From the NCBI GenBank assembly GCA_003987775.1, contig RXJD01000081.1, forward strand, positions 1 to 41,827: DNA of 41,827 nucleotides, written 5' to 3'. Positions 18,240 to 31,309 of the stretch are shown piece by piece. Each line of letters opens with the position of its first letter. Position 1 is the first letter of the stretch. The translations under genes and the position numbers were made by a program. The stretch comes from Mycobacterium sp. (GTDB lineage Bacteria > Actinomycetota > Actinomycetes > Mycobacteriales > Mycobacteriaceae). A model generated the notes under the pieces. That model was not told where the DNA came from. It worked only from the letters and a program-made list of their open reading frames with translations, and did no database searches.

Positions 18240-18294
18240 GGCTACTCCTTGCTGCCGACTGCGTGACGTGTGCGAGGCTACGCGGAAGTTCCAC

Positions 18295-18300
18295 ATTATG
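18295..18300 (-). promoter_or_regulatory. Candidate -10 box for echA13
   Basis: On the minus strand this reads CATAAT, five of six bases of the consensus TATAAT, about 55 bases before the echA13 ATG. It overlaps the outer end (block 3) of the 88-bp element, so a repressor bound there would cover it. No convincing -35 lies 17 bases further up. Confidence 0.45.
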
Positions 18301-18385
18301 TCCATAGCCAATACGCCGATTCTGGACATCTTGGTCTGCGAATTACCAAGCAAAAAGCATCTTGTGTACAACGAAGTATCTTGCT
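18298..18385 (-). promoter_or_regulatory. Composite 88-bp element A, candidate Mce3R operator (echA13/melF)
   Basis: Read on the minus strand, the element has three blocks: AGCAAGATAC (positions 1-10), TTTTGCTTGGTAATT (31-45) and GCGTATTGGCTATGGACAT (70-88). The same three blocks at exactly the same spacing occur before yrbE3A (30376-30463); by hand count 61 of 88 bases agree, nearly all block positions among them. A and B point in opposite directions on the chromosome. Inside A, CAAGAT also recurs at element positions 22 and 53. It lies between the two divergent operons known in M. tuberculosis to be repressed by Mce3R. Binding is inferred, not shown. Confidence 0.65.
18377..18382 (+). promoter_or_regulatory. 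Candidate -10 box for melF
   Basis: TATCTT fits TANNNT and is the reverse complement of the core of element block 1. It would start transcription near 18389, leaving a leader of about 79 bases before the melF ATG. The same hexamer from block 1 of element C serves as a candidate -10 for the NTF2-like gene at 27224, which supports the idea. TACTGT at 18388-18393 is an alternative. Confidence 0.35.
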
Positions 18386-18467
18386 AGTACTGTGTTATAC
18401 CTAGATACGAGCCAACCGCGGCGCGCCGGAATCCCGGCCCGGGTACACACGACAAGAAGGGTTAACG

Positions 18468-19577
18468 ATGGAGATCGGAATCTTCCTGATGCCGGCCCAC
18501 CCACCGGAGCGCACTCTGTACGACGCGACCCAGTGGGACCTCGACATCATCGAGCTGGCCGACCAGCTCGGGTATGTCGAAGCCTGGGTGGGTGAACACT
18601 TCACTGTGCCCTGGGAGCCGATCTGCGCGCCCGATCTGTTACTGGCCCAGGCGCTGTTGCGCACCAAGCACATCAAGCTCGCGCCCGGTGCCCACCTGCT
18701 GCCGTACCACCACCCGGTCGAATTGGCGCACCGGGTAGCGTATTTCGACCATCTCGCCCAGGGCCGCTTCATGTTGGGCGTGGGCGCCAGCGGCATCCCC
18801 GGCGACTGGGCCCTGTATGACGTCGACGGCAAGAACGGCGAGCACCGCGAGATGACTCGCGAGGCACTGGAGATCATGCTGCGCATCTGGACCGAGGACC
18901 AGCCGTGGGAACACCGCGGAAAGTACTGGAACGCCAACGGGATTGCGCCGATGTTCGAAGGGCTGATGAAACGCCACATCAAGCCGTTCCAGAGTCCACA
19001 CCCGCCCATCGGGGTCACCGGTTTCAGCGCCGGCTCCGAAACGCTGAAGCTGGCAGGCGAACGGGGTTATCTGCCAATGAGTTTGGACCTCAACACCGAA
19101 TACGTCGCCACCCACTGGGATGCGGTGCTGGAGGGAGCCGAGCGCAGTGGGCGCACCCCGGACCGCCGCGACTGGCGCCTGGTGCGTGAGGTGCTGGTGG
19201 CCGAAACCGACGAACAGGCCTTCCGTTACGCCGTGGACGGCGCCATGGGCCGGGCCATGCGCGAGTACACGCTGCCCACCTTCCGGATGTTCGGCATGAC
19301 CAAGTTCTACAAACACCACCCGTCGGTGGCCGACGACGACGTGACCGCGGAATACCTGGCCGAGAACACCTTTGTGGTCGGCTCGGTGGAGACCGTCGTG
19401 GACAAACTCGAAGCAACCTATGACCAGGTCGGCGGGTTCGGCCACCTGTTGGTGCTCGGGTTCGACTACCGGGACGACCCGGGGCCGTGGAAAGAGTCAC
19501 TTCGCCTCCTGGCGGAAGAGGTCATGCCGAGACTCAACGCCCGCATCGCCAGGAAACCGGTGGCCCTGGTCGTCTAG
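18468..19577 (+). CDS. melF: Luciferase-like flavin-dependent monooxygenase MelF (Rv1936-like)
   Basis: LLM-class flavin monooxygenase of 369 aa, the length I recall for Rv1936/MelF. It starts with the TIM-barrel strand MEIGIFLMP, followed by VEAWVGEHF (the family's xxEHH-type active-site segment), RFMLGVGASGIPGDW, HPPIGVTGFSAGSETLKLAGERG and a late FVVGSVETVVDKLE. Such enzymes use reduced FMN and O2 supplied by a separate reductase to oxidise an organic substrate. The ATG at 18468 has AAGAAGG about 7 bases upstream. It is the first gene of the mel operon, which in M. marinum and M. tuberculosis is linked to resistance to oxidative and nitrosative stress. MelG or MelI may supply its reduced flavin. 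Confidence 0.9.
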   Translation: MEIGIFLMPAHPPERTLYDATQWDLDIIELADQLGYVEAWVGEHFTVPWEPICAPDLLLAQALLRTKHIKLAPGAHLLPYHHPVELAHRVAYFDHLAQGRFMLGVGASGIPGDWALYDVDGKNGEHREMTREALEIMLRIWTEDQPWEHRGKYWNANGIAPMFEGLMKRHIKPFQSPHPPIGVTGFSAGSETLKLAGERGYLPMSLDLNTEYVATHWDAVLEGAERSGRTPDRRDWRLVREVLVAETDEQAFRYAVDGAMGRAMREYTLPTFRMFGMTKFYKHHPSVADDDVTAEYLAENTFVVGSVETVVDKLEATYDQVGGFGHLLVLGFDYRDDPGPWKESLRLLAEEVMPRLNARIARKPVALVV

Positions 19578-19600
19578 CGCACTCTAGGAAGGGCACCGCA

Positions 19601-22126
19601 ATGTCGATTCCAACGTCGATTCGCCAAGTCACCGTCGGTTACGCGGACGGAACAGCCAGGACAATGCCCGTGCGGGCGGACCAGTCGATACTGGATGCCG
19701 CCGAAGAACACGGTGTTGCCATCGTCAACGAATGCCAGAGCGGCATCTGCGGCACCTGCGTGGCCAGTTGCCCCTCCGGGCAGTACGAGATGGGGCGCAC
19801 CGAGGGCCTGTCCGACGTGGAGCGTGCGGCACGAAAGATATTGACGTGCCAGACATTCGCCACCACGGACTGCCGCATCGAGCTGCAGTACCCGGCCGAC
19901 GACAACGCCGCGCACCTGGTCGCCGGCGACGGTGTGGTGACCGGCGTCGAGCTGGTGTCGTCCAGCACGGCCATCCTGACAGTTGACGTCTCCGGGCTGG
20001 GCACGCCGGTGCGTTACAAGGCCGGCCAGTTCGCACAGCTACAGGTGCCCGGCACCGACACCTGGCGGAACTACTCCTACGCCCATCCCGACGGCCGCTC
20101 TGAACTGGAGTTCATCATCCGGTTGCTGCCCGACGGCGTCATGTCGAACTATCTCCGCGATCGCGCCAAGCCCGGCGACCGAATCACCATGCGCTGCAGC
20201 AAGGGCAGCTTCTACCTACGTCCGGTCGCGCGACCGGTGATCCTGGTCGCCGGGGGCACGGGTCTGTCGGCGATCCTGGCGATGGCAGGCAGTCTGTCGC
20301 CGGACACCAACCAACCGGTCTATCTGCTCTACGGGGTCACTGCGGCCGATGATCTGTGCAAGCTCGACGAACTCACCGAGTTGCGGCGTCGCGTCGCCGC
20401 CCTCGAGGTGCACGTCATCGTCACGAACTCGGACGCCGGCTGGGACGGGCGAACCGGGATGGTGACCGACCTGCTCGACGAACGGATGCTGGCCGGCGGC
20501 GATGCCGACGTCTATCTGTGCGGTCCGGCAGCGATGGTTGAGGCTACTCGAAGATGGCTGGACGACAACGGTTTCCAGCGCGTCGGTCTCTACTACGAGA
20601 AGTTCGTTCCCAGTGGCGCCGCCCGCCGGCGCGCCCCGTCGCGCCTGGACTACGCAGCCGTGGACATCGGCGAGGTACGCCGGCGCGGCCGCGGCACCGC
20701 GGTCGTGATCGGCGGCAGCATCGCCGGCATCGCGGCGGCAAAGGTGTGCAGCGAAACCTTCGAACGCGTCATCGTGCTGGAGAAGGACGACCCACACCGC
20801 CGCCGCGAAGGCAGACCGGGTGCCGCGCAGGGCTGGCATCTACATCACCTGCTCACCGCCGGGCAGATCGAGCTGGAGCGATTCTTTCCCGGCATCGTCG
20901 ACGACATGGTCCGCGAGGGCGCGTTCAAGGTCGACATGGCAGCCCAGTACCGGATCCGGCTGGGCGGCTCGTGGAAGAAGCCCGGCACGAGTGACATCGA
21001 AATCGTCTGCGCCGGCAGGCCCCTGCTGGAATGGTGCGTACGGCGCCGGCTGGACGACGAACCGCGCGTCGACTTCCGTTACGAATCCGAGGTCACCGAC
21101 CTGGTGTTCGACCGTGAGAACAATGCCGTCATCGGCGTCGCCGTCGGCTCTGAATCCGAGGTGATCCCAGCGGAGTTCGTCGTCGACGCATCCGGCAAGA
21201 ACACTCGGGTGCCGGAATTCCTGGACCGCATCGGAATCGGCGCCCCCGAAGTCGAGCAGGACATCATCAATTGCTTCTACTCCACGATGCAGCACCACGT
21301 TCCACCCGAGCGGCAGTGGCAGGACAAGGTCATGGTGATCTGTTACGCGTATCGTCCGTTCGAGGACACGTACGCGGCGCAGTATTACATCGACAGCAGC
21401 CGCACGCTGTTGTCCACCTCGCTGGTGGCCTACAACTGCTATTCGCCACCGCGAACCGCCAAGGAGTTCCGCGAGTTCGCCGATATCATGCCGTCGCCGG
21501 TAGTGGGGGAGAACATCGACGGTCTGGAACCGGCCTCACCGATCTACAACTTCCGCTACCCGAACATGCTGCGGCTGCACTACGAGAAGAAGCGCAATCT
21601 GCCGCGCGCCCTGGTTGCCGTCGGTGACGCCTACACCAGCGCTGACCCAGTGTCGGGCCTGGGAATGAGCCTGGCGCTCAAGGAAGTCAGGGAGATGCAG
21701 CTGCTGCTGGCCAAGTACGGACCAGGGCACCGGGACCTGCCTCGCCGCTACTACCGGTCGATCGCCAAGATGGCCGACACCGCCTGGTTTGTGATCCGCG
21801 AACAGAACCTGCGGTTCGACTGGATGAAGGACGTGAACAAGAAGCGCCCGTTCTACTTCGGCGTGCTCACCTGGTACATGGACCGCCTGCTGGAGCTGGT
21901 GCACGACGACCTCGACGCCTACCGCGAGTTCCTCGCCGTGGTCCACCTGGTCAAGCCACCACTGGCACTGATGAAGCCGGGCATCGCCGGACGCGTCATC
22001 GGCAAATGGGCTCGCACCAGGCTCTCGGGGGAGAAGACCCTGATCGCCCGAAACTACGAAAACCGTTCGATACCAACTCAGCCCGCCCACGAGCTGGTGG
22101 GCGCGGCCGCAGGTGACGGACATTAA
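19601..22126 (+). CDS. melG: MelG: ferredoxin-reductase / flavoprotein monooxygenase fusion (Rv1937-like)
   Basis: Large redox protein of 841 aa (839 recalled for Rv1937). Residues 1-95 are a plant-type 2Fe-2S ferredoxin with Cys45, Cys50, Cys53 and Cys83. Residues 105-335 are a BenC-like reductase with the FAD motif RNYSY near 156-160, the NAD-binding VAGGTGLSA near 216-225 and YLCGPAAM near 305-312. Residues 365-841 are a second FAD domain with a Rossmann motif (VVIGGSIAGIAAA), DASGKNTRVPEF and the late GDAYTSADPVSGLGMS motif of halogenase/hydroxylase-type flavoproteins. It thus joins an electron-supply chain to a possible oxygenase. Start ATG 19601, preceded by AGGAAGGG; 23 bp after melF. 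Substrate unknown. Confidence 0.9.
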   Translation: MSIPTSIRQVTVGYADGTARTMPVRADQSILDAAEEHGVAIVNECQSGICGTCVASCPSGQYEMGRTEGLSDVERAARKILTCQTFATTDCRIELQYPADDNAAHLVAGDGVVTGVELVSSSTAILTVDVSGLGTPVRYKAGQFAQLQVPGTDTWRNYSYAHPDGRSELEFIIRLLPDGVMSNYLRDRAKPGDRITMRCSKGSFYLRPVARPVILVAGGTGLSAILAMAGSLSPDTNQPVYLLYGVTAADDLCKLDELTELRRRVAALEVHVIVTNSDAGWDGRTGMVTDLLDERMLAGGDADVYLCGPAAMVEATRRWLDDNGFQRVGLYYEKFVPSGAARRRAPSRLDYAAVDIGEVRRRGRGTAVVIGGSIAGIAAAKVCSETFERVIVLEKDDPHRRREGRPGAAQGWHLHHLLTAGQIELERFFPGIVDDMVREGAFKVDMAAQYRIRLGGSWKKPGTSDIEIVCAGRPLLEWCVRRRLDDEPRVDFRYESEVTDLVFDRENNAVIGVAVGSESEVIPAEFVVDASGKNTRVPEFLDRIGIGAPEVEQDIINCFYSTMQHHVPPERQWQDKVMVICYAYRPFEDTYAAQYYIDSSRTLLSTSLVAYNCYSPPRTAKEFREFADIMPSPVVGENIDGLEPASPIYNFRYPNMLRLHYEKKRNLPRALVAVGDAYTSADPVSGLGMSLALKEVREMQLLLAKYGPGHRDLPRRYYRSIAKMADTAWFVIREQNLRFDWMKDVNKKRPFYFGVLTWYMDRLLELVHDDLDAYREFLAVVHLVKPPLALMKPGIAGRVIGKWARTRLSGEKTLIARNYENRSIPTQPAHELVGAAAGDGH

Positions 22127-22139
22127 GGGAGACGTGAGC

Positions 22140-23201
22140 ATGCTGCATCGGATCTTGAACTGCCGGGGCACCCGGATCCACGCGGTGGAGGCCGGACCCC
22201 AGGATGCCGGGGCGCCGCTGGTGGTGCTGATTCACGGCTTTCCAGAGTCGTGGTACTCGTGGCGCCACCAGATTCCTGCTCTGGCCGCCGCCGGTTACCG
22301 GGTGGTTGCCATCGATCAACGCGGCTACGGACGTTCGTCGAAGTACTTCCTGAACTCCGCCTACCGCATTCACGAACTCGTCGGCGACATCGTCGGCGTC
22401 GTTGACGCCTACGGCGCGGACACCGCGTTCGTCGTCGGGCACGACTGGGGCGCACCGGTTGCCTGGACGTTCGCCTGGCTGCATCCACAGCGGTGCGCCG
22501 GTGTGGTCGGCATCAGCGTTCCCTTTGCCGGGCGCGGCGTGATCGGGTTGCCGGGCAGTCCTTTCGGTGAACACCGTCCCAACGACTACCACCTGGAACT
22601 GGCCGGCGAAGGGCGGGTCTGGTACCAGGATTACTTCTCCGCACAGGACGGCGTCATCGCCGAGATCGAAGAAGACGTCCGGTCCTGGCTCCTCGGCCTG
22701 ACGTACACGGTCTCCGGTGACGGGATGATCGCGGCGACCAAGGCCGCCGTCGATGCCGGCGTCGATCTGGCCGCCATGGACCCGATCGACGTGATCCGTG
22801 CGGGCCCGCTCTGCATGGCCGAAGGCGCGAAACTCAAAGACGCGTTCGTCTATCCCGAAACCATGCCGTCCTGGTTCACCGACACCGACCTCGACTTCTA
22901 TGCAGCGGAGTTCGAGCGCTCCGGCTTCGGCGGGCCGTTGAGCTTCTACCACAACATCGACAACGACTGGCACGACCTCGCAGACCAGGAAGGCAAACCG
23001 CTCACGCCACCGGCTCTGTTCATCGGCGGACAGTACGACGTCGGCACCACCTGGGGAGCCGAGGCCGTGGAGCGGGCGGACGAGGTCATGTCGGACTTCC
23101 GCGGCACCCACATGGTCGCCGATGTCGGTCACTGGATTCAGCAGGAAGCACCCGAGGAAACCAACCGGTTGCTGCTGAACTTCCTTGACGGAGTCCGCTA
23201 G
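22140..23201 (+). CDS. ephB: Epoxide hydrolase EphB / MelH (Rv1938-like)
   Basis: Alpha/beta-hydrolase fold epoxide hydrolase of 353 aa, very close in sequence and length to M. tuberculosis EphB (356 aa) as I recall it. The oxyanion segment is HGFPESW at 32-38; the nucleophile is Asp102 in GHDWGAP; the lid tyrosines are Tyr162 and Tyr270; the charge relay is Asp300 and His331. It opens epoxides to diols by way of an ester intermediate. The start is taken as ATG 22140, with AAGGGAG 8 bases before it; GTG 22134 and GTG 22113, which overlaps melG, are alternatives. In the mel operon it may detoxify epoxides formed by the flavin oxygenases or by lipid peroxidation. Confidence 0.95.
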   Translation: MLHRILNCRGTRIHAVEAGPQDAGAPLVVLIHGFPESWYSWRHQIPALAAAGYRVVAIDQRGYGRSSKYFLNSAYRIHELVGDIVGVVDAYGADTAFVVGHDWGAPVAWTFAWLHPQRCAGVVGISVPFAGRGVIGLPGSPFGEHRPNDYHLELAGEGRVWYQDYFSAQDGVIAEIEEDVRSWLLGLTYTVSGDGMIAATKAAVDAGVDLAAMDPIDVIRAGPLCMAEGAKLKDAFVYPETMPSWFTDTDLDFYAAEFERSGFGGPLSFYHNIDNDWHDLADQEGKPLTPPALFIGGQYDVGTTWGAEAVERADEVMSDFRGTHMVADVGHWIQQEAPEETNRLLLNFLDGVR

Positions 23202-23203
23202 TC

Positions 23204-23716
23204 ATGGTCGAGCTGACGGCCGATCGTCTCGACGGCACCGCGCTGCGCCGGGCCTTCGGTTGTTTCCCGTCCGGGGTGGTCGCGCTCTGCGCTGCCGAGA
23301 ACGGGGTCCCGGTCGGCATGGCCGCCAGTACTTTCACGGCGGTATCTCTTGAGCCCCCGCTGGTATCGGTCTGCATTCAGCGAAGTTCGACGACGTGGCC
23401 GCGGCTACGGGAGCGGCCTTTCCTGGGTGTCAGTGTGCTGGCCGAGGGACACGACGACGCATGTATCAGCCTGTCCCGCAAGACCGGAGACCGATTCACC
23501 GGAGTGCCGTGGATCGAGTTGCCCAGCGGGGCGGTGGTGGTCCACGGATCCGCGGCGCGGCTCGACTGTTGCCTGCGCGACGAGATCCCGGCCGGCGACC
23601 ACCTCATCGCCTTGCTCGAAATCCGTTCGCTGTGCGCCGATCCCGGCACCCCGCCGCTGGTCTTCCACGGCAGCCGATTTCACCGACTTGCAACTGCTGG
23701 GGGAGAAAGCACATGA
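23204..23716 (+). CDS. melI: Flavin reductase-like protein MelI (Rv1939-like)
   Basis: Protein of 170 aa (171 recalled for Rv1939) of the flavin reductase-like domain family. Landmarks are LRRAFGCFPSGVVALCA at about 10-26, GMAASTFTAVSLEPPLVSVCI with the flavin-contacting serine/threonine residues, FLGVSVLAEG, and a C-terminal PLVFHGSRFHRL. These enzymes reduce free FMN or FAD with NAD(P)H and pass it to a partner oxygenase, here most simply MelF. The ATG is 2 bp after the ephB stop, and the last codon overlaps the melJ start as ATGA, so translation is coupled on both sides. Confidence 0.88.
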   Translation: MVELTADRLDGTALRRAFGCFPSGVVALCAAENGVPVGMAASTFTAVSLEPPLVSVCIQRSSTTWPRLRERPFLGVSVLAEGHDDACISLSRKTGDRFTGVPWIELPSGAVVVHGSAARLDCCLRDEIPAGDHLIALLEIRSLCADPGTPPLVFHGSRFHRLATAGGEST

Positions 23717-24783
23717 AGACCACCGACGTGCGAGTCCGGCGTGCGATCACCGCGATCGCGGCCGGACAACCCGTCGTGCTCACCGACGGCACCGACGGTG
23801 ACGGTTTTCTGGCATTCGCCGCCGAAGCAGCCACGTCGAGCCTGCTGCACTTCGCGGTCCGCCACACCTCGGGCTATGTCCGAGTAGCGTTGCCGGGCAA
23901 CGAGTGTGAGCGACTGCAGCTGCCGCCGATGTGTCATGGCGACAGTCCGGACTGCGTCTCGGTCGACGTACGTGGAACGGGCACCGGCATCTCTGCGGCA
24001 GACCGGGCGAAAACCATTGCGGCACTGGGCTGTGCTGCTACCGTCGGCTCGGATCTGCAACGCCCGGGCCACGTCGTTCCGGTGCAGGCCAACGCAGACG
24101 GGGTGCTGCGACGGCGCGGCGCCGCCGAGGCCGCCGCCGACCTGGCGCGGCTGGCCGGCCGGAGGCCTGCGGCCGGCTTCTGCGAGATCGTCTCCCGCCG
24201 CAACCCCGTGCAGGTCGCCCGTGGTGGCGAGTTGGTCGAGTTCGCACTCGAATACGGGCTCGCGGTGGTCTCCATCTCCGAACTGGTGGCCTACCGGCGG
24301 CGGACCGAACCTCAGGTGGTGCGGCGTGCCGAAGCCGTATTGCCGACCTGGGCCGGGGATGCCCGGGTGCTCGGCTTCCGGGGCGTCCATGACGGAGGCG
24401 AGCATCTCGCGGTGATCATCGGTGCCGCGGATGCGGGCGTGCCGGTGCCGTTGCACGTGCACGTCGAGTGCCTGACCGGCGATGTGTTCGGCTCCAAAGC
24501 TTGTCGATGCAGTGGTGAACTCACCAGTGCACTCAACAGAATGTCGGCACAGGGCAGCGGGGTCGTACTGTACCTGCGCCCGGCCGGACCGCCGCGCGCC
24601 TGTGGCCTGTTCGCACGTGACGAATCCGCTGACCCCACCGCGGAAACCGTCGCCTGGATGCTGCGCGACCTCGGGGTATATGCCCTCAAACTCGCCGAGG
24701 ACATGCCAGGATTTGGGCTGGTGCTGTTCGGGGCGATCCGTGAGCACGGCGTGGATGCCCAACCGTGGGCAGCGGCCGGCTGA
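23713..24783 (+). CDS. ribA1: MelJ/RibA1, degenerate DHBP synthase-GTP cyclohydrolase II homologue
   Basis: Two-domain RibA homologue of 356 aa (353 recalled for RibA1, Rv1940). Residues 1-200 follow the DHBP synthase fold (DVRGTGTGISAADRAKTI, RPGHVVPVQANADGVL), but the acidic magnesium-binding loop, normally RENEGDL, reads TDGDGFL at 27-33, and GHTEA reads GAAEA at 136-140, losing the metal-binding His. Residues 205-356 follow GTP cyclohydrolase II with zinc cysteines Cys253, Cys264 and Cys266, but the RQEGRGIGL segment is PAGPPRACGL and about 30 residues after it are missing. Riboflavin synthesis by this protein is doubtful. ATGA overlap with melI. The longer upstream frame is melI in another frame. 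It might bind flavin or GTP. Confidence 0.88.
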   Translation: MKTTDVRVRRAITAIAAGQPVVLTDGTDGDGFLAFAAEAATSSLLHFAVRHTSGYVRVALPGNECERLQLPPMCHGDSPDCVSVDVRGTGTGISAADRAKTIAALGCAATVGSDLQRPGHVVPVQANADGVLRRRGAAEAAADLARLAGRRPAAGFCEIVSRRNPVQVARGGELVEFALEYGLAVVSISELVAYRRRTEPQVVRRAEAVLPTWAGDARVLGFRGVHDGGEHLAVIIGAADAGVPVPLHVHVECLTGDVFGSKACRCSGELTSALNRMSAQGSGVVLYLRPAGPPRACGLFARDESADPTAETVAWMLRDLGVYALKLAEDMPGFGLVLFGAIREHGVDAQPWAAAG

Positions 24784-24823
24784 GAACCGAAGTAAGACAC
24801 AGACATGAGGCAAAAAGAAGCAC

Positions 24824-25594
24824 ATGACGCATAAAGACCTGGCCGGCAAAGCGGCGATCGTCACCGGGGCGGGCGCAGGCATTGGCCTGGCGGTGGCGCA
24901 ACGGCTTGCCAGCGAGGGCTGTCAGGTGCTCTGCGCGGACATCGACGCCGCGGCAGCCGAAACCGCCGCGACGAAAATCGGTCATGGTGCCGTCGGTCAT
25001 CAAGCCGACGTCAGCGATGAAGAGCAGGTTATCGCCATGGTCCAGGCGTGCGTCACGTTGTTCGGCGGTGTGGACAAGCTCGTCGCCAATGCCGGTGTCG
25101 TTCATTTCGCTTCGCTCATCGACACCTCGGTCCAGGACTTCGACCGCGTCATCGGGATCAATTTGCGTGGGGCCTGGCTCTGCACGAAACACGCAGCGCC
25201 ACAGATGATCAAGCGCGGAGGCGGAGCGATCGTGAACATGTCGTCGCTGGCCGGACATATCGCGGTGGGCGGGTCCGGAGCGTATGGCATGTCCAAGGCC
25301 GCGATCAGCCATCTGAGCCGGATCACAGCCGCCGAGTTGCGTTCGTCCAACATCCGCGCCAATGCGCTGTTGCCCGCCTTCGTCGACACTCCGATGCAGC
25401 AGACAGCGATGACGATGTTCGACGAAGCACTCGGCGAGGGCGGCGCCCGCAGCATGATCGGCCGACTGCAGGGCCGGATGGCAGCACCCGAGGAGATGGC
25501 CAGCATCGTGGCCTTCCTGCTCTCCGACGACGCGTCGATGATCACCGGAACCACCCAGATCGCCGACGGCGGAACCGTCGCCGCGCTGTGGTGA
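24824..25594 (+). CDS. melK: Short-chain dehydrogenase/reductase MelK (Rv1941-like)
   Basis: Classical SDR of 256 aa, the same length as Rv1941 from memory. It has TGAGAGIG near 16-23, ADVSDEEQV, the ANAGV motif near 88, a catalytic serine in NMSSLAGH, and YGMSK with the Tyr-Lys pair. It ends ITGTTQIADGGTV, the usual SDR C terminus. Start ATG 24824, preceded by a purine run (AAAAAGAAG). It follows melJ by 40 bp and is the last mel gene. Its stop lies 3 bp from the convergent mce3R stop. It probably oxidises or reduces a product of the earlier mel enzymes. Confidence 0.9.
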   Translation: MTHKDLAGKAAIVTGAGAGIGLAVAQRLASEGCQVLCADIDAAAAETAATKIGHGAVGHQADVSDEEQVIAMVQACVTLFGGVDKLVANAGVVHFASLIDTSVQDFDRVIGINLRGAWLCTKHAAPQMIKRGGGAIVNMSSLAGHIAVGGSGAYGMSKAAISHLSRITAAELRSSNIRANALLPAFVDTPMQQTAMTMFDEALGEGGARSMIGRLQGRMAAPEEMASIVAFLLSDDASMITGTTQIADGGTVAALW

Positions 25595-25597
25595 AGC

Positions 25598-26776
25598 TCA
25601 GGACCGGCTGGTCAGGATGGACAGTGCGATCGCGGTGATCTCATCGGCAACCCCGGAATAGCGGGTGAGATGCCATGTGCGAGCGACGTCTTCGATAAAA
25701 CTGATTGCCGCGGCGACCAACAGCCGGCCCTCGACGACGGTCGGGGCGGGGATCAGATCGATCCACACCGACTCACGGTCAGCCTGGTTACGCAGGTAGC
25801 TCTCCCGCACTTCGGGGGATGCGTAGGACAACTCTGTGACGCAGACCGCCACCAGATCCGGCGCGTCCAGACTGATCCGGACATGGCCCTCCACCAGCCG
25901 CCGTAGACGTTGCGCCGCTTCCGATTCCGCGCGCAACGCGCGGATGGCCTCCAGGCTGCGCCACTCGTCGAGGCGGCGGATCAGCGCATCGAGGATCGCC
26001 TGCTTCGAGGAGAAGGAACGGTACAGTCCCGGGCCGGCGATACCGGCGCCCTTGGCGATCTCGCTGGTGCTGACCGCGGGATATCCCTGCGCGCGAAACA
26101 GCCGCGCGCCGGTGGCCAGCAGCGTTTCATAACGCGAGAACAACACGTCCACAACGGTGTCGGCCTCGAGCGGTTGCAGCCCGGCGACCGGAGGTGTCCG
26201 CGCCGCAGCCATACAGGCGTCATAGAGCAGGGTTCTGAGGTCCTCGGCGGGCAGTGTCAGATTGTGCCGGCCCAGGCTCGTCAGGGTGCTGGACACCGCC
26301 CAAGCCCGCAGCTCGGAATGCCGCGGGCTCAGTCCGGGTACCTCCAGCAGGACGCTTTCGCGCATGCCGGCGACGATCGCGTTGATTCGCCGGCGCACCT
26401 GAGCGCGGTCATCTTCGTTCAGATACCGAGCTTCTCGCTGCCACAGCACCGTCAGCACCCGGGAAGCCACGGCCGCGGCGATCAGATCTGGCAGGTCGAT
26501 GCCCAACGGCCGGGGCTCGGGCTCTGACTCACCATCGCTGAGCCGGCGCGCACTCTGGTACTGATCTTGTCCGGTCCGGATCGCCTCGGCGAGCAGGGCC
26601 TGCTTGTTGTCGTAATGCCGGTACAGCGCGCGGGCGGTGACGCCGGCCGCCTCCGCGATGTCCTCCAGCTTGACCGAATGGAAACCACGGTCGATGAACA
26701 GGCGGACAGCCTGGTCGAGGATCTGCTGCTTACGGTCTTTGGGTCGGCGGCGCACGGGCTGGACGGCGGTCTCCAT
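25598..26776 (-). CDS. mce3R: Double-TetR repressor Mce3R (Rv1963c-like)
   Basis: Regulator of 392 aa (about 406 in M. tuberculosis) made of two TetR units in one chain. The first helix-turn-helix lies at about 13-60 ([19 protein letters not shown]), the second at about 214-262 ([19 protein letters not shown]); each is followed by a helical ligand/dimer domain. In M. tuberculosis Mce3R represses mce3, the echA13/fadE genes and the mel genes; lipids are suspected ligands. Start ATG 26776, with AAAGGGG 9 bases upstream; a TTG codon sits just before it. It follows the NTF2-like gene by 55 bp on the same strand and is probably in its operon, under element C. Confidence 0.92.
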
Positions 26777-26831
26777 CAAGCCGAACCCCTTTCTGCGCCG
26801 CGGGACTTCAATCCTGCCAGAGAAGTATCGC

Positions 26832-27224
26832 CTAGAGCCGCAGGCCGCTCTGAGACTCGAAGTCCGCCAGGTCGAAGTAGTCGCTGAAGCGGGTGATCCT
26901 GCCGCCCTTCACTTCGAAAACGCCGGTGACCGGCAGTACGACTTTGCGACCGTCGTTCATGGTGAAGTAGTCGATGCGTTCGGCGAGCACCAGGCCCGGC
27001 GCGGCCGCCAGCGACACGATGTCCAGTTTGGCAGCCGAGAACGCGTCCAGGAATCCTTGGAAAGCGGCGCGGATTCCGTCGATGCCCTCGATCGGCTGGA
27101 CCGGCACATTGTGGTAGACGGCGTCTTGGGCGAAGCCGCTGCAGATGGTGTCGAGGTTGCGCGACTCCCAGGATCCGAGGAAGTCACGGACCAGCCGCTC
27201 GCTGATCTCCGTTGTGTCGGTCAT
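26832..27224 (-). CDS. NTF2/SnoaL-like protein upstream of mce3R
   Basis: Small cone-fold protein of 130 aa. [34 protein letters not shown] and the later [18 protein letters not shown]-like ending fit the limonene-epoxide-hydrolase/SnoaL group. Members may act on epoxides or steroid and polyketide intermediates; the exact reaction is open. The likely start is ATG 27224, because TATCTT on the minus strand ends exactly 6 bases before it, giving a leaderless transcript; an ATG at 27239 would add five residues but covers this box. It is probably cotranscribed with mce3R. I do not recall this gene beside mce3R in M. tuberculosis. Confidence 0.8.
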
Positions 27225-27227
27225 AAT

Positions 27228-27316
27228 CTCAAGATACATCAGCAGGGCAGAAACGGTCTATCACTTGCGGTTACGCCTCTTGTCGTCCCAATCCTAATGG
27301 TATTGGCTGTAGACTT
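27228..27316 (+). promoter_or_regulatory. Degenerate element C, candidate third Mce3R operator
   Basis: The three blocks of elements A and B recur in weaker form: CAAGATAC at 27230-27237 (8 of 10 of block 1), a CTTGcGGTTA segment near 27265-27274 (block 2, poor), and GTATTGGCTGTAGACTTAT at 27300-27318 (block 3, like GTATTGGCTATGGACAT). Blocks 2 and 3 keep their spacing; block 1 is shifted by one base. It lies immediately before the NTF2-like gene and so upstream of mce3R, which suggests autoregulation. Confidence 0.45.
27231..27236 (-). promoter_or_regulatory. Candidate -10 box for the NTF2-like/mce3R operon
   Basis: The minus strand reads TATCTT, matching TANNNT, followed by 6 bases and then the ATG at 27224, as expected for a leaderless mycobacterial transcript. 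The box is part of block 1 of element C. The rest of the 191-bp gap up to 27415 holds element C and no gene. Confidence 0.45.
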
Positions 27317-27415
27317 ATGCTTGCGCAGTGCATCGCGCCGAGCCTGCAACCCAGCAGTGCACGTGCGAGTAGGGCCGCCCAATCTCTTGGCCGGGCACCG
27401 CAGACGCATTGAGCC

Positions 27416-28594
27416 TCACCCCAAGTCGGGCACGCTGGCCAGTCGCACATACGCCGATGCGGCCTCCGCGCGGTTGGTCGCATTCAGCTTGCGCAGCACC
27501 CTTTTGACGTGTGACTTGACCGTGCCCGCAGAGATCACCAGCTCATCGGCGATCTGCTGGTTGGTGCGACCGGCCGCCATCAGTCGCAACACCTCCACTT
27601 CGCGACGGGTCAGCATCGCCATCACCCGCGTCTGTACCTCAGCCAAAGACCTTGCGGCGGGGCTTCGTTCGACCGGTTCGATCTTGCGCAGATCCAAATC
27701 CGCGTCCTGCATAGCACGGGCAGCTTCGTCAGCCGAGGCCAGCGCGCGCAGCACTTCGGCGTGCTGGCGGCGCATGCGCTCCAGCAATACCGTGCGCTCG
27801 TAGGCATAACCGAACCCTTCGGCGAAAGCCCACACCGTGTCGCGATCGATCTCGTCGACAATGCGCCCGGAGTAGAGCCGGTCGGCATGCAGGAACCCGA
27901 TCACCTTGCCCGTCGGCATCACCGGTGCGGCCACGTAGGAGTGCGTGAGCGAGAAGTCGACGATCGGCCGGTTCACCCGCGGATCGTTACGAGCGTCGCG
28001 CACGATGGCGGGCGCGTGCCGGCGGATCATCTGCGTCTCGATCAACATGTGATCCAGCGGCGGCGCCACCGACTGCGCGAAGGCCACCATCTTCTCCGCA
28101 CCAGTCGTGTCCTCACCGAAGTAGGCCGACTCCATGACCATTCGCCCTTCGTGCACACGAAACAGCACGGCGCGGTCGAATCCGCACGACTCCACCAGCT
28201 CGCGCGGCGCGCGGTCGACGATGGTCGCCACATCGTCGACTGCGCGCAATTTGCTCAACGCCTCCTGCACGGCCAACAGCGCGAAAGTCCGCCGCTTGGC
28301 ACCGTCCTCGATCAACTCCCGCTCCAGGGCGCACAAGTCCAGCAGCGATTCCAGCGCATCGGTTGCGGTCTCGCGCCCGATCGCCTCGAGCGCAGTGCGA
28401 ACAGCCGCGGCCTTGGCGTCGATGGCTTCGGCGACCACCGCCAGCGGGTCATCGGTGGGGTCGACCCCGCAGCCGTCGAACGCATCGCGGTAACGGCGGG
28501 CGGCGTCAGTCTCCCGCACCGGGTGCGAGCGCCACCCGGGGTGGTCTCCATCGGCCAGAGTTCCGAGAACCTGGTCATCGATCACGGTGCTCAC
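27416..28594 (-). CDS. GAF-domain LuxR-family transcriptional regulator
   Basis: Regulator of 392 aa. An N-terminal helical part (to about 110) is followed by a GAF-like sensor domain (about 120-280; [41 protein letters not shown]), then a C-terminal LuxR helix-turn-helix (about 325-385) with [36 protein letters not shown]. No receiver domain or phospho-acceptor is seen, so it should respond to a small ligand or redox state. Start GTG 28594 with GGGAGGA close upstream; a GTG at 28585 is also possible. It diverges from the P450 gene with 116 bp between them and probably controls it. Confidence 0.82.
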
Positions 28595-28635
28595 TGTCCT
28601 CCCGGAAGTGGACTGGCGCGAGAGAATCCGGAAAT

Positions 28636-28653
28636 TGCCCTCCTACGGGGGCA
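28636..28653. promoter_or_regulatory. Inverted repeat between the LuxR-type and P450 genes
   Basis: TGCCC, 8 bases, GGGCA form an 18-bp imperfect palindrome in the 116-bp divergent gap. A further CGGGGG repeat lies about 25 bases on. Its size and place suit an operator for the dimeric LuxR-type regulator, but in GC-rich DNA such a match can arise by chance. Confidence 0.3.
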
Positions 28654-28710
28654 GGAGTCCTCTCCATCGGGGGATCGCTTTGCCACCGCCGCTGCCCGAA
28701 GCTGATCGAC

Positions 28711-29955
28711 ATGTCTTTCACGACCGTCCCCGCCATCGAACTGCTCACCACACCCGAGGGCATCGCCAACCCGTATCCGCTGTATGACCAGCTCCGTGCA
28801 CTGTCTCCCGTTGCGGGATACCGGGATTGGCCGCCGGGGACGGTGCCCGGGGCAGACGAGCCCGTCACTGCGTGGGCCCTGTTCCGTTACGACCAGGTCC
28901 ACGCGGCGGCACGCGACAGCACCACATTCTCCTCGCGGGATCCGCTGCAGGAGGCCTCGTCAGCGCCCAGCCTGATGCTGGTCAACACCGATCCGCCCAA
29001 GCATGAGGTGGAGCGCAAACTGGTGAGCCAGGCATTCTCGCCGCGGCGCGTTAAACGTCTCGAGGGCTGGTTGGGCGAGTTGGTCCCGCGCCTGCTCGAC
29101 GCTCTCGGAGCCGGCGAGGTGGACGTGATGGAATTCGCCGCGGAGGTCCCCACCCGGGCCATGGTTCGACTGCTCGGCTTGCCCGACGGCGACCACGTAC
29201 GGTTCCGGCGCTGGGCCAACGCGTTCATGCTGTCGTCGACGCTGACGCCGCAGGAGCGCATGGCGAGCAACGAGGAGATGGTGGCGACGTTCGCCACGCG
29301 ACTTGCCGAGCACACGGCCCGGTTGGCACAGTGGCCGTCCGGAGCCGATGGCGAGGACGTGGAAGACGCCGAAGATCTGATCTCCGCCCTGCTGCGCGCC
29401 GAGGTCGACGGGCAACGGCTCACGCCGGAGGAAATCGTGCGCTTCTGCGTGACGCTGGTGGTCGCGGGCAGCGAAACCACCACCTTCCTCATCGGCAACC
29501 TGTTGCACGCCCTTGCGCGAGAACCTCACGTGCAGAAGCGGGTTCGCGCCGACCGCGCACTACTCAACATCTTCATCGAAGAGACGATGCGGCTCGACGG
29601 ACCACCGCAACGTCTCTTCCGCATCGCCACCCGCGACGTGGAGATCGACGGCAAGTCGATCCGTGCGGGGGACTGGGTGGCGCTGTTCTTCGGTTCGGCC
29701 AACCGCGATCCCGCGGTGTTTCCCGACCCCGACCGCCTCGACATCGACCGGCCCAACATTCGCCAGCAGCTGTCACTCGGTCACGGACTGCACTTCTGCC
29801 TCGGCGCAGCGCTGGCCAGGCTGGAGGTCATGTCGGTGCTCAACGCCGTACTGGATCGCTATTCGACCATCACGCTGACCGACGACCCCGGCACCAAGCA
29901 GACCGCCAGTCTGCTGACACACGCGTATGTCCGCCTGCCCCTTCACCTTTCATGA
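28711..29955 (+). CDS. Cytochrome P450
   Basis: Class I-type bacterial P450 of 414 aa. The I-helix is VVAGSETTTFL (about 250-260), the K-helix ExxR is EETMR (about 290), and the heme loop is LGHGLHFCLGAALARLE with the cysteine ligand near residue 365. There is no membrane anchor or fused reductase, and no ferredoxin gene adjoins it, so electrons must come from elsewhere. The open frame continues 116 codons upstream, but the ATG at 28711 begins the homologous part (MSFTTVPAIELL, NPYPLYDQLR). It is linked by an ATGA overlap to the following NTF2-like gene, an arrangement that suggests hydroxylation or epoxidation followed by a second step. The CYP family is not assigned. Confidence 0.92.
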   Translation: MSFTTVPAIELLTTPEGIANPYPLYDQLRALSPVAGYRDWPPGTVPGADEPVTAWALFRYDQVHAAARDSTTFSSRDPLQEASSAPSLMLVNTDPPKHEVERKLVSQAFSPRRVKRLEGWLGELVPRLLDALGAGEVDVMEFAAEVPTRAMVRLLGLPDGDHVRFRRWANAFMLSSTLTPQERMASNEEMVATFATRLAEHTARLAQWPSGADGEDVEDAEDLISALLRAEVDGQRLTPEEIVRFCVTLVVAGSETTTFLIGNLLHALAREPHVQKRVRADRALLNIFIEETMRLDGPPQRLFRIATRDVEIDGKSIRAGDWVALFFGSANRDPAVFPDPDRLDIDRPNIRQQLSLGHGLHFCLGAALARLEVMSVLNAVLDRYSTITLTDDPGTKQTASLLTHAYVRLPLHLS

Positions 29956-30356
29956 CGAACGCCGCACGCAACATCGCAGCGACCAAGGCGGTTTACGCCG
30001 CGGTTCCGGCGGGCGACCTGCAGACTGCGCTGGCCCACCTGGATCCCGAGGTCCGCATCACCTACTACGGCACCGAAAGCATCCCGTATGCCGGCGAGTA
30101 TCGGGGCATCGACGAAGCGGTGACGTTCTTCACCACGGTCGGTCAGCACATCGAGATCGTCGAGATGCAGGCATGGAAGTTCATCGCCGAAGGTGACGAC
30201 CTGGCCGCCTGGGGACGCCAGCGGTTCCGCCGGCTTGCCACCGGACACGAATGGGAGTCGGAGTTCGCCCACATCATCACCCTGCGCGACGGTCGCTGGC
30301 TGCACTTCCGTGACTTCATGAACTCGGCGCTCACATTGCAAGCGTTCACCTCATGA
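29952..30356 (+). CDS. NTF2/SnoaL-like protein coupled to the P450
   Basis: Protein of 134 aa with the SnoaL-like pattern: VYAAVPAGDLQTALAHLDPEVRITYYG near the start, then IPYAGEYRGIDEAVTFFTTVG, then EFAHIITLRDGRWLHFRDFMNS. Trp, Tyr and Asp residues in these places line the pocket in this fold. It starts at 29952 by a 4-base overlap with the P450 stop, so the pair is translated together. It may hydrate or isomerise the P450 product, or simply bind it. It is not closely alike in sequence to the other two NTF2-like proteins of the window by eye. Confidence 0.82.
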   Translation: MTNAARNIAATKAVYAAVPAGDLQTALAHLDPEVRITYYGTESIPYAGEYRGIDEAVTFFTTVGQHIEIVEMQAWKFIAEGDDLAAWGRQRFRRLATGHEWESEFAHIITLRDGRWLHFRDFMNSALTLQAFTS

Positions 30357-30375
30357 TCTGCCAGATTCCGATATC

Positions 30376-30463
30376 AGCAAGATACATGCTTGCAGATAAT
30401 CAGTGTTTTGCTTGGTAATTTGCCGTACGTCATGCGAAATATGAGCGTATCGTCTATGGACAT
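30376..30463 (+). promoter_or_regulatory. Composite 88-bp element B, candidate Mce3R operator (mce3)
   Basis: Copy of element A in plus orientation, with AGCAAGATAC at 30376-30385, TTTTGCTTGGTAATT at 30406-30420 and GCGTATCGTCTATGGACAT at 30445-30463. Block 1 continues as GCAAG-N7-CTTGC, a small inverted repeat. The spacers differ from A while the blocks do not, as expected for protein contacts selected across about eight helical turns. Its downstream end lies 72 bases before the yrbE3A ATG. Confidence 0.65.
30448..30453 (+). promoter_or_regulatory. Candidate -10 box for the mce3 operon
   Basis: TATCGT fits TANNNT and lies inside block 3 of element B. Transcription would begin near 30460, just before the ATG of the short leader frame at 30462 and about 76 bases before yrbE3A. 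No clear -35 is seen; the promoter may depend on context or on loss of repressor. Confidence 0.35.
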
Positions 30464-30542
30464 GAGCGCTGCGTTCCGCGTACCCTCGCGGATGTCACAC
30501 GTCCACTTCGATCAGCCCGGGGGGTGCGCGGCGACATGGTGA
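30462..30542 (+). CDS. Possible 26-aa leader peptide before yrbE3A
   Basis: An open frame starts with ATG at the last bases of element B (MSAAFRVPSRMSHV...) and ends with TGA at 30540-30542, so its stop overlaps the first codons of yrbE3A. If transcription starts near 30460 it would be an almost leaderless upstream frame and could couple translation into yrbE3A, whose own ribosome binding site is weak. There is no sequence homology I recognise. It may equally be chance. Confidence 0.3.
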   Translation: MSAAFRVPSRMSHVHFDQPGGCAATW

Positions 30543-31309
30543 TCGCGATCGGCCAAGCGGCCAAACCGGTCCGCGCGATCGGCGATTTCTTCGCGATTTC
30601 CCTGGATACGTTCCTGGCCACCTTCCGTGCGCCGTTCGCCTGGCGCGAGTACCTGCTGCAGTGCTGGTTCGTCGCGCGGGTATCGACCCTGCCCGGCATC
30701 CTGATGACCATCCCGTGGGCCGTCATTTCGGGATTCCTCTTCAACGTATTGCTGACCGACATCGGCGCCGCCGACTTCTCTGGCACCGGATGCGCGATCT
30801 TCACCGTGGACCAGAGCGCCCCGATCGTCACCGTCCTGGTCGTCGCCGGCGCCGGATCCACCGCCATGTGTGCCGATCTGGGGGCCCGCACCATCCGGGA
30901 GGAACTCGACGCGCTGCGGGTGATGGGTATCAATCCGATTCAGGCACTTGCGGTTCCCCGCGTGCTGGCGGCCACCACCATCTCGCTGGCCCTCAGTTCG
31001 ATCGTGACTGCGACAGGATTGATCGGAGCCTTCTTCTGCTCGGTGTTCCTCATGCACGTATCGGCGGGCGCCTGGGTGAGCGGACTCACCACCCTGACCC
31101 ACACCATCGACGTGATCATCTCGATGATCAAGGCGACGCTGTTCGGCCTGATGGCAGGACTGATCGCCTGCTACAAGGGCATGTCGGTAGGCGGCGGCCC
31201 CGCCGGCGTGGGGCGTGCGGTCAACGAGACGGTGGTGTTCGCCTTCATCGTCCTGTTCGTCATCAACATCATCGTCACCGCAGTCGGCATGCCGTTCATG
31301 GTGTCGTGA
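30536..31309 (+). CDS. yrbE3A: Mce3 permease subunit YrbE3A
   Basis: Integral membrane MlaE-type permease of 257 aa (265 in M. tuberculosis), one of the two subunits of the Mce3 ABC-like lipid importer in the inner membrane. Five to six hydrophobic helices are seen; the conserved EELDALRVMGINPIQAL loop near 125-142 is the MlaE signature thought to contact the ATPase (MceG, encoded elsewhere). Segments such as FAWREYLLQCWFVARVSTLP are nearly the same as the M. tuberculosis protein as I recall it. Start is ATG 30536; GTG 30524 is possible. The gene is the first full gene of the operon under element B. Confidence 0.94.
   Translation: MVIAIGQAAKPVRAIGDFFAISLDTFLATFRAPFAWREYLLQCWFVARVSTLPGILMTIPWAVISGFLFNVLLTDIGAADFSGTGCAIFTVDQSAPIVTVLVVAGAGSTAMCADLGARTIREELDALRVMGINPIQALAVPRVLAATTISLALSSIVTATGLIGAFFCSVFLMHVSAGAWVSGLTTLTHTIDVIISMIKATLFGLMAGLIACYKGMSVGGGPAGVGRAVNETVVFAFIVLFVINIIVTAVGMPFMVS

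What the first reader, a model, noticed from the sequence alone, without database searches (positions are those of the whole stretch)
18298..30463. 88-bp three-block element shared by the echA13/melF and yrbE3A control regions, with identical block spacing
Seen directly: AGCAAGATAC, TTTTGCTTGGTAATT and GCGTATnGnCTATGGACAT occur at element positions 1, 31 and 70 in both 18298-18385 (minus) and 30376-30463 (plus). By hand 61 of 88 bases agree, nearly all within the blocks, while spacers are random. Fixed spacing over about eight turns suggests one large protein assembly rather than a single TetR dimer. Known: Mce3R represses both gene sets in M. tuberculosis. Inferred: this is the Mce3R operator, bidirectional and asymmetric.
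Basis: partly seen in the sequence, partly recalled or inferred. Interest (0 to 1): 0.8.

Follow-up and report, generated by a model that had tools for sequence, protein, structure and literature searches.

The report
Shared Mce3R repressor operator, three blocks
Two control regions in this mycobacterium carry the same 88-base, three-part DNA element, which is likely the already described docking site of the repressor Mce3R and is predicted to shut off lipid-handling genes by covering their promoters.

Summary
In detail: 61 of 88 bases agree (1000 shuffles: mean 37, maximum 44), with blocks at positions 1, 31 and 70. It is most likely an orthologous form of the Mce3R operator. A 2024 paper describes three conserved asymmetric regions upstream of M. 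tuberculosis yrbE3A, with Mce3R on regions 1 and 3; a 2009 study, known to me through that paper, predicted motifs at Rv1935c-Rv1936 too. The mce3R orthologue lies inside the window (25598-26779). Additions here: (1) blocks 1 and 3 belong to two direct repeats of one 17-bp motif, 76 or 77 bp apart; (2) block 3 holds a TGGACA box exactly 18 bp before a TANNNT box in 64 of 66 rows, so the strong site likely covers the -35 of the echA13 and yrbE3A promoters; (3) a weak third copy lies upstream of the mce3R gene cluster; (4) the element occurs in 57 of 297 Mycobacterium genomes, the same 57 that have a full-length Mce3R orthologue; (5) block 2 is conserved less strongly, is not among the published binding sites and has no known function. 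The 'one large assembly' idea is not supported. Mostly known; block 2 and the spacing remain open.

The parts
18298..18385 (-). the 88-base element between echA13 and melF
   Evidence: 61 of 88 with 30376-30463; R1 match 18272-18396, 91.9 bits, a training sequence of R1
18374..18390 (-). repeat 1 (element -4 to 12), likely the upstream Mce3R site
   Evidence: direct repeat of block 3 at offset 76; corresponds to published region 1 by inference
18340..18366 (-). block 2 region (element 20-46), role unknown
   Evidence: 60% identity between the two elements of a genome against 30% in the spacer, 14 genomes
18298..18316 (-). block 3 (element 70-88), likely the strong Mce3R site; holds TGGACA at 18299-18304
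   Evidence: 89% identity between the two elements of a genome; published region 3 by inference
18275..18280 (-). predicted -10 box TAGCCT of echA13
   Evidence: TANNNT at this distance in 66 of 66 rows; strict promoter scan found none
   Evidence: PF00378 E 3.8e-38; start chosen by eye with AAGGAG upstream
18468..19577 (+). luciferase-family monooxygenase gene (melF)
   Evidence: PF00296 E 1.3e-41
25598..26779 (-). mce3R orthologue, double-TetR repressor, 393 aa
   Evidence: two TetR_N stretches; PDB 9b7y Mce3R, E 9.3e-206
26832..27239 (-). LEH/SnoaL-like gene between the third copy and mce3R (longest reading frame; the true start may lie inside)
   Evidence: PF07858 E 6.8e-19
27223..27316 (+). 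weak third copy of the element, likely for autoregulation of mce3R
   Evidence: R1 13.6 bits, E 0.0018 over the window, 0.31 over the genome; read by eye
30376..30463 (+). the 88-base element upstream of yrbE3A
   Evidence: R1 73.2 bits, a training sequence of R1
30371..30387 (+). repeat 1, likely the upstream Mce3R site; its 5' half departs from the usual GTACT
30395..30421 (+). block 2 region, role unknown
30445..30463 (+). block 3, likely the strong Mce3R site; holds TGGACA at 30457-30462
30481..30486 (+). predicted -10 box TACCCT of yrbE3A
   Evidence: TANNNT in 66 of 66 rows; strict promoter scan found none
30524..31309 (+). yrbE3A, MlaE-family permease gene, first gene of the mce3-like operon (start codon uncertain)
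   Evidence: PF02405 E 1.2e-52

Best explanation
This is most likely the orthologous Mce3R operator: two direct-repeat copies of one 17-bp asymmetric motif, 76 bp apart, each likely bound by one double-TetR Mce3R monomer, the downstream copy holding the predicted -35 box of the echA13 or yrbE3A promoter, so that bound repressor would keep RNA polymerase off until a ligand, probably lipid-derived, releases it. Shown here: the sequence anatomy, its conservation, the orthologue in the window, the fixed distance to a TANNNT box. Shown in print for M. tuberculosis: Mce3R binds regions 1 and 3 of the yrbE3A operator and represses mce3. Inferred: that the window's protein binds these copies, that block 3 carries the -35, that the third copy serves autoregulation, and the nature of the ligand. 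Block 2 has no assigned role; I favour a helper or spacer role in cooperative binding of sites 1 and 3, with low confidence.
For: Orthologue of solved Mce3R in the window. Published three-region operator with Mce3R on regions 1 and 3, 25 bp each with 53 bp between (PMC11667970, parts 1-5 of 7 read); that is 78 bp start to start, close to the 76-77 bp repeat distance found here. Repeat 1 against block 3: mean 9.96 of 17 at offset 76 or 77, other offsets mean 4.14, sd 1.23, 46 elements. TANNNT 18 bp after TGGACA: 66 of 66 and 64 of 66 rows. A start codon 11 bases after the start of the -10 in 35 of 39 yrbE3A-side rows fits a leaderless start. Element in 57 of 297 genomes, the same 57 with a full Mce3R orthologue. 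Both HTH segments 98% and 91% conserved against 77% overall, 37 orthologues.
Against: No binding test exists for this species or, in what I read, for the echA13/melF copy. Co-occurrence is confounded because gene and operators are neighbours and melF shows the same pattern. TGGACA was part of the pattern used to find the elements, and TANNNT was part of profile R1 used to find 20 of the 66 rows, so those rates are partly by selection; the 46 rows were found without using TANNNT. A strict TATAAT-type promoter scan found nothing in either region. 76-77 bp is not a whole number of helical turns. Block 2 is unexplained.
Confidence: 0.85

Rival explanations
1. Block 2 is the site of a second, unidentified protein (activator, co-repressor or nucleoid protein), so the element is a two-protein switch rather than an Mce3R operator alone.
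For: Block 2 is kept above the spacer level in both elements (60%, core 67%, against 30%), keeps its place relative to block 1 (single gap column lies between blocks 2 and 3), and in M. tuberculosis is conserved but neither footprinted nor in the density.
Against: Weaker conservation than the Mce3R repeats (84% and 89%); no clear symmetry or known motif; no candidate protein. The published probes never altered region 2 alone, in the parts read.
Confidence: 0.27
2. One Mce3R dimer or larger assembly holds sites 1 and 3 of the same element at once, bending the DNA between them, which is why the spacing is kept.
For: Direct repeats kept at 76 or 77 bp; Mce3R dimers in the cryo-EM structure hold two DNA duplexes, and region 1 strengthens binding about twentyfold (2.4 against 49-59 nM).
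Against: The authors state that their probes, which span both sites, are too short to loop. Spacing varies by one base.
Confidence: 0.15
3. The shared sequence is a recent copy or gene conversion of one promoter region by the other and is not kept by selection.
For: Block 2 is identical over 15 bases in the window's two copies, more than in most of the 14 genomes compared.
Against: Spacers differ at about chance level while blocks are kept across slow and rapid growers. The two elements of one genome are not clearly more alike than elements of different genomes for any of six segments.
Confidence: 0.04

Closest known systems
Mce3R operator of the M. tuberculosis yrbE3A (mce3) promoter (PMC11667970, parts 1-5 of 7 read)
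   Same: Three conserved asymmetric regions over about 104 bp upstream of yrbE3A; two Mce3R sites about 78 bp apart start to start; stronger site downstream; same double-TetR protein family.
   Different: Another species. Here the downstream repeat, the -35/-10 placement, the weak third copy and the echA13-side copy are laid out across many species; the letters were not compared with the published probe, which was not available as text.
Operators of single-domain TetR repressors such as KstR2 and Fad35R
   Same: DNA-binding domains related by sequence: 4g12 and KstR2 chains are among the hits.
   Different: Classical TetR operators are short palindromes bound by homodimers (stated in PMC11667970 and PMC4482099 passages); the repeats here are asymmetric and lie head to tail.

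Membership tests
Mce3R operator | Lies upstream of yrbE3A in a genome that encodes Mce3R | tested here: met
   Window element 30376-30463 and mce3R 25598-26779; strong element in 19 of 22 sequences with a yrbE3A hit
Mce3R operator | Three conserved asymmetric regions, the outer two about 78 bp apart start to start | tested here: met
   Blocks at 1, 31, 70; repeats 76 or 77 bp apart in 46 elements
Mce3R operator | Same letters as the published M. tuberculosis probe | not tested
Mce3R operator | Bound by Mce3R | not testable with these tools
   Needs EMSA or footprint; only the M. tuberculosis protein on its own operator is published in what I read
Classical palindromic TetR operator | Palindromic site of about 15-28 bp | tested here: not met
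   No dyad stands out: best centres score 0.42-0.44 at several places (mean 0.25, sd 0.07) and none is special to one block
Mycobacterial housekeeping-type promoter | TANNNT box with a -35-like hexamer 16-19 bp upstream | tested here: met
   66 of 66 rows TANNNT, 64 of 66 TGGACA, 18-bp spacer (the TANNNT rule is recalled); against: strict TATAAT-type scan found none

The most novel reading that the evidence does not exclude
Block 2 is the docking site of a second, still unknown regulator that works with Mce3R in a rigidly spaced complex, so the mce3 and echA13/melF switch is a two-input device rather than a simple ligand-released repressor.
Probability: 0.27. Interest if true: 0.55.

Novelty: already known. 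Interest (0 to 1): 0.34.

Why it matters
Mce3R controls genes implicated in cholesterol metabolism, lipid transport and oxidative-stress resistance in M. tuberculosis (PMC11667970). The cross-species map turns the published operator into a precise promoter model (strong site on the predicted -35, a direct-repeat partner 76-77 bp upstream) and isolates the one conserved part, block 2, that the published binding data do not explain. It also shows the system in species whose records bear the name Mycolicibacterium, whereas the 2024 paper calls mce3R exclusive to a subset of pathogenic mycobacteria.

Tried and rejected
Block 2 as a palindrome: CAAG-N10-CTTG is striking in some rapid growers, but its dyad score (0.43 and 0.42 at centres 28.5 and 30.5) is matched by dyads elsewhere in the element, so I do not claim it. 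Block 2 as an inverted third Mce3R site: mean 7.7 of 17 against 4.4 (sd 1.2), about the same as self-overlap offsets. Gene conversion: no clear within-genome excess. Assigning half-sites to the M1 or M2 HTH through Pseudonocardia homologues (M1 HTH 82% kept, M2 46-50%): only two and one weak motif hits in the two loci, inconclusive. A melF promoter box: by eye I saw no TANNNT at a constant place; no script tested this. Coding test of the mini-ORF: synonymous share 0.38 against 0.25 expected, no third-position excess, too weak to call.

Row handling: one L006 element that the script filed under yrbE3A (816 bp away) was moved out before the counts of 19 and 46. Two frameshifted rows (L088, L091) were left out of the coding test only. 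L043 (partial hit) and L040/L042 (Pseudonocardia) gave no element. The 39 yrbE3A-side rows join 19 with 20 that I picked and fetched. I took those 20 as yrbE3A-side because they are not next to melF; the gene was not checked in each. At least two (L095, L097) lie on contigs of the same length as L005 and L012 and are probably the same sequences. The genus searches cover 297 genomes drawn from a larger group; one search used stricter filters, which lose weak matches. The names echA13 and melF, and their equation with Rv1935c and Rv1936, come from the finding and from recall; calls give only Pfam families.
Full report
Observation. They align without gaps at 61 of 88 positions, with three shared blocks at element positions 1, 31 and 70. 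In 1000 pairs of dinucleotide-preserving shuffles of the two intergenic regions the best 88-base match averaged 37.2 (sd 1.7) and never exceeded 44. Chance is excluded.

Setting. The plus-strand copy lies before an MlaE permease gene (yrbE3A), which is followed by an Mce gene. Between them, at 25598-26779 (minus), is a protein with two TetR_N stretches that matches the solved chain 9b7y, 'Transcriptional repressor Mce3R', over residues 4-391 with E 9.3e-206. The whole module is therefore in one window.

What is in print. PMC11667970 (parts 1-5 of 7 read) reports that MEME on the yrbE3A upstream regions of M. tuberculosis, M. bovis and M. marinum gives a 104-bp sequence with three conserved asymmetric regions of about 25 bp; that Mce3R binds regions 1 and 3, each 25 bp and separated by 53 bp; that region 3 is the strong site; that the double-TetR monomer binds region 3 with both HTHs; and that regions 1 and 2 show no density in the structure. 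It also says that Santangelo et al. 2009 (not held) footprinted two regions of about 33 and 32 bp there and predicted motifs in the mce3R-yrbE3A and Rv1935c-Rv1936 intergenic regions. PMC2277422 (part 1 of 4 read) shows repression of mce3 and autoregulation. PMC4482099 (passages only) notes that the Mce3R motif is large, complex, in multiple copies and not a classical palindrome. PMC10843139 (word search of the text only) had nothing on the operator. Its picture of one assembly over the whole element is not what these data show.

Conservation. Mce3R was used to fetch 40 loci from the species genomes: 37 mycobacterial orthologues, two Pseudonocardia homologues at 38-39% identity and one partial hit. 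With the window there are 27 sequences with an echA13 hit, and 27 of 27 carry the element upstream (33-42 of 42 block letters); of 22 with a yrbE3A hit, 19 carry a strong element (32-42 of 42). The other three (L020, L024, L026) have yrbE3A hits of only 68-71% identity; two of them have a weak element there. The two Pseudonocardia loci have no element. The 46 strong elements align in 128 columns with one gap column, between blocks 2 and 3, filled in 12 of 46, all 12 on the echA13 side.

Anatomy. Block 1 is often preceded by AGTACT. Positions -4 to 12 (commonest form GTACTAGCAAGATACAT) and 72-88 (GTATTGGCTATGGACAT) agree at 11 of 17 positions as direct repeats. Over the 46 elements the agreement averages 9.96 of 17 at an offset of 76 bp (77 in the longer form), against a mean of 4.14 (sd 1.23) over offsets 20-109 and 7.07 for the runner-up. 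This fits one asymmetric recognition unit used twice, and the published 78 bp start to start.

Promoter. After block 3 comes a conserved CGCGTAnnnT. A TANNNT box lies at the same distance in 66 of 66 rows (27 echA13-side, 39 yrbE3A-side) and is preceded, 18 bp upstream and inside block 3, by TGGACA in 64 of 66. Some of this is by selection: TGGACA was in the search pattern, and TANNNT was in profile R1, which found 20 of the 66. The inference is that the strong Mce3R site sits on the -35 of both promoters, so repression is by blocking RNA polymerase. The stricter scan tool found no promoter in either region; the -10 boxes are far from its TATAAT. On the yrbE3A side a start codon lies exactly 11 bases after the start of the -10 in 35 of 39 rows, which suggests a leaderless start and supports the promoter map.

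Regulon. A sequence-only profile (R1) finds three copies in the window's genome at E up to 1, all in the window: the two elements (both in its training set) and a weak third at 27224-27320, E 0.0018 over the window and 0.31 over the genome. The third precedes an LEH/SnoaL-like gene and mce3R. Similar weak copies upstream of mce3R were picked up in 21 of the 40 loci (counting the L006 one; in L020 and L024 the copy lies between mce3R and yrbE3A and could serve either), which supports it more than its E-value does. Over 297 genomes of the genus, 57 have the element at E up to 0.01, 58 a Mce3R hit at E up to 1e-50 and 58 a melF hit at E up to 1e-100. The same 57 are in all three lists; the extra Mce3R hit (G280, 41% identity, residues 7-316) and the extra melF hit (G054, 49%) come without the element. 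Because gene and operators sit together, this shows a module that travels as one, not binding by itself.

Block 2. Comparing the two elements of the same genome (14 genomes), repeat 1 agrees at 84%, block 3 at 89%, the -10 region at 86%, block 2 at 60% (core 67%), the spacer after block 2 at 30% and the far upstream at 34%. Block 2 is therefore under constraint, but less than the Mce3R repeats, and the window's perfect 15 of 15 is above average. Paired elements are not clearly more alike than unpaired ones, so conversion is unlikely. No symmetry test gave block 2 a clear form. Its function is the real open question.

Protein side. Over 37 orthologues the M1 and M2 HTH segments (28 residues each) are 98% and 91% identical to the window's, against 77% overall, as expected for a constant operator.

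Verdict. Real, old within the genus, and already known in kind. The additions are the direct-repeat layout, the promoter placement, the wide distribution, the weak third copy, and the isolation of block 2 as unexplained. The search listings and passages I saw (and the papers above) showed nothing on the direct-repeat layout or the -35 overlap, but the 2009 paper was not readable here and most hits were seen as listings only, so I claim no priority.

Noticed in passing
30492-30542, and the 39 rows: A mini-ORF starts 11 bases after the start of the predicted -10 of yrbE3A (start codon in 35 of 39 rows), reading MS..HFD.SGG-like; in many relatives it has 13 codons and its stop overlaps a following GTGA or ATGA, in others it runs on in frame. 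In the window it has 16 codons and its stop overlaps the likely yrbE3A start. It may be a leaderless leader peptide, but the coding signal is weak and two rows are frameshifted.
   Followed up: partly
27416-28594: A LuxR/GAF regulator gene lies between mce3R and yrbE3A in the window and in several slow growers.
   Followed up: no
L040 and L042: Pseudonocardia homologues of Mce3R (38-39%) keep the M1 HTH (82%) but not the M2 HTH (46-50%), which suggests that one half-site is kept and the other changed.
   Followed up: partly
G075 and G292: The melF match is read with a TGA stop inside in G075 and in two pieces, one with a TGA, in G292, while the operator and mce3R matches are kept.
   Followed up: no
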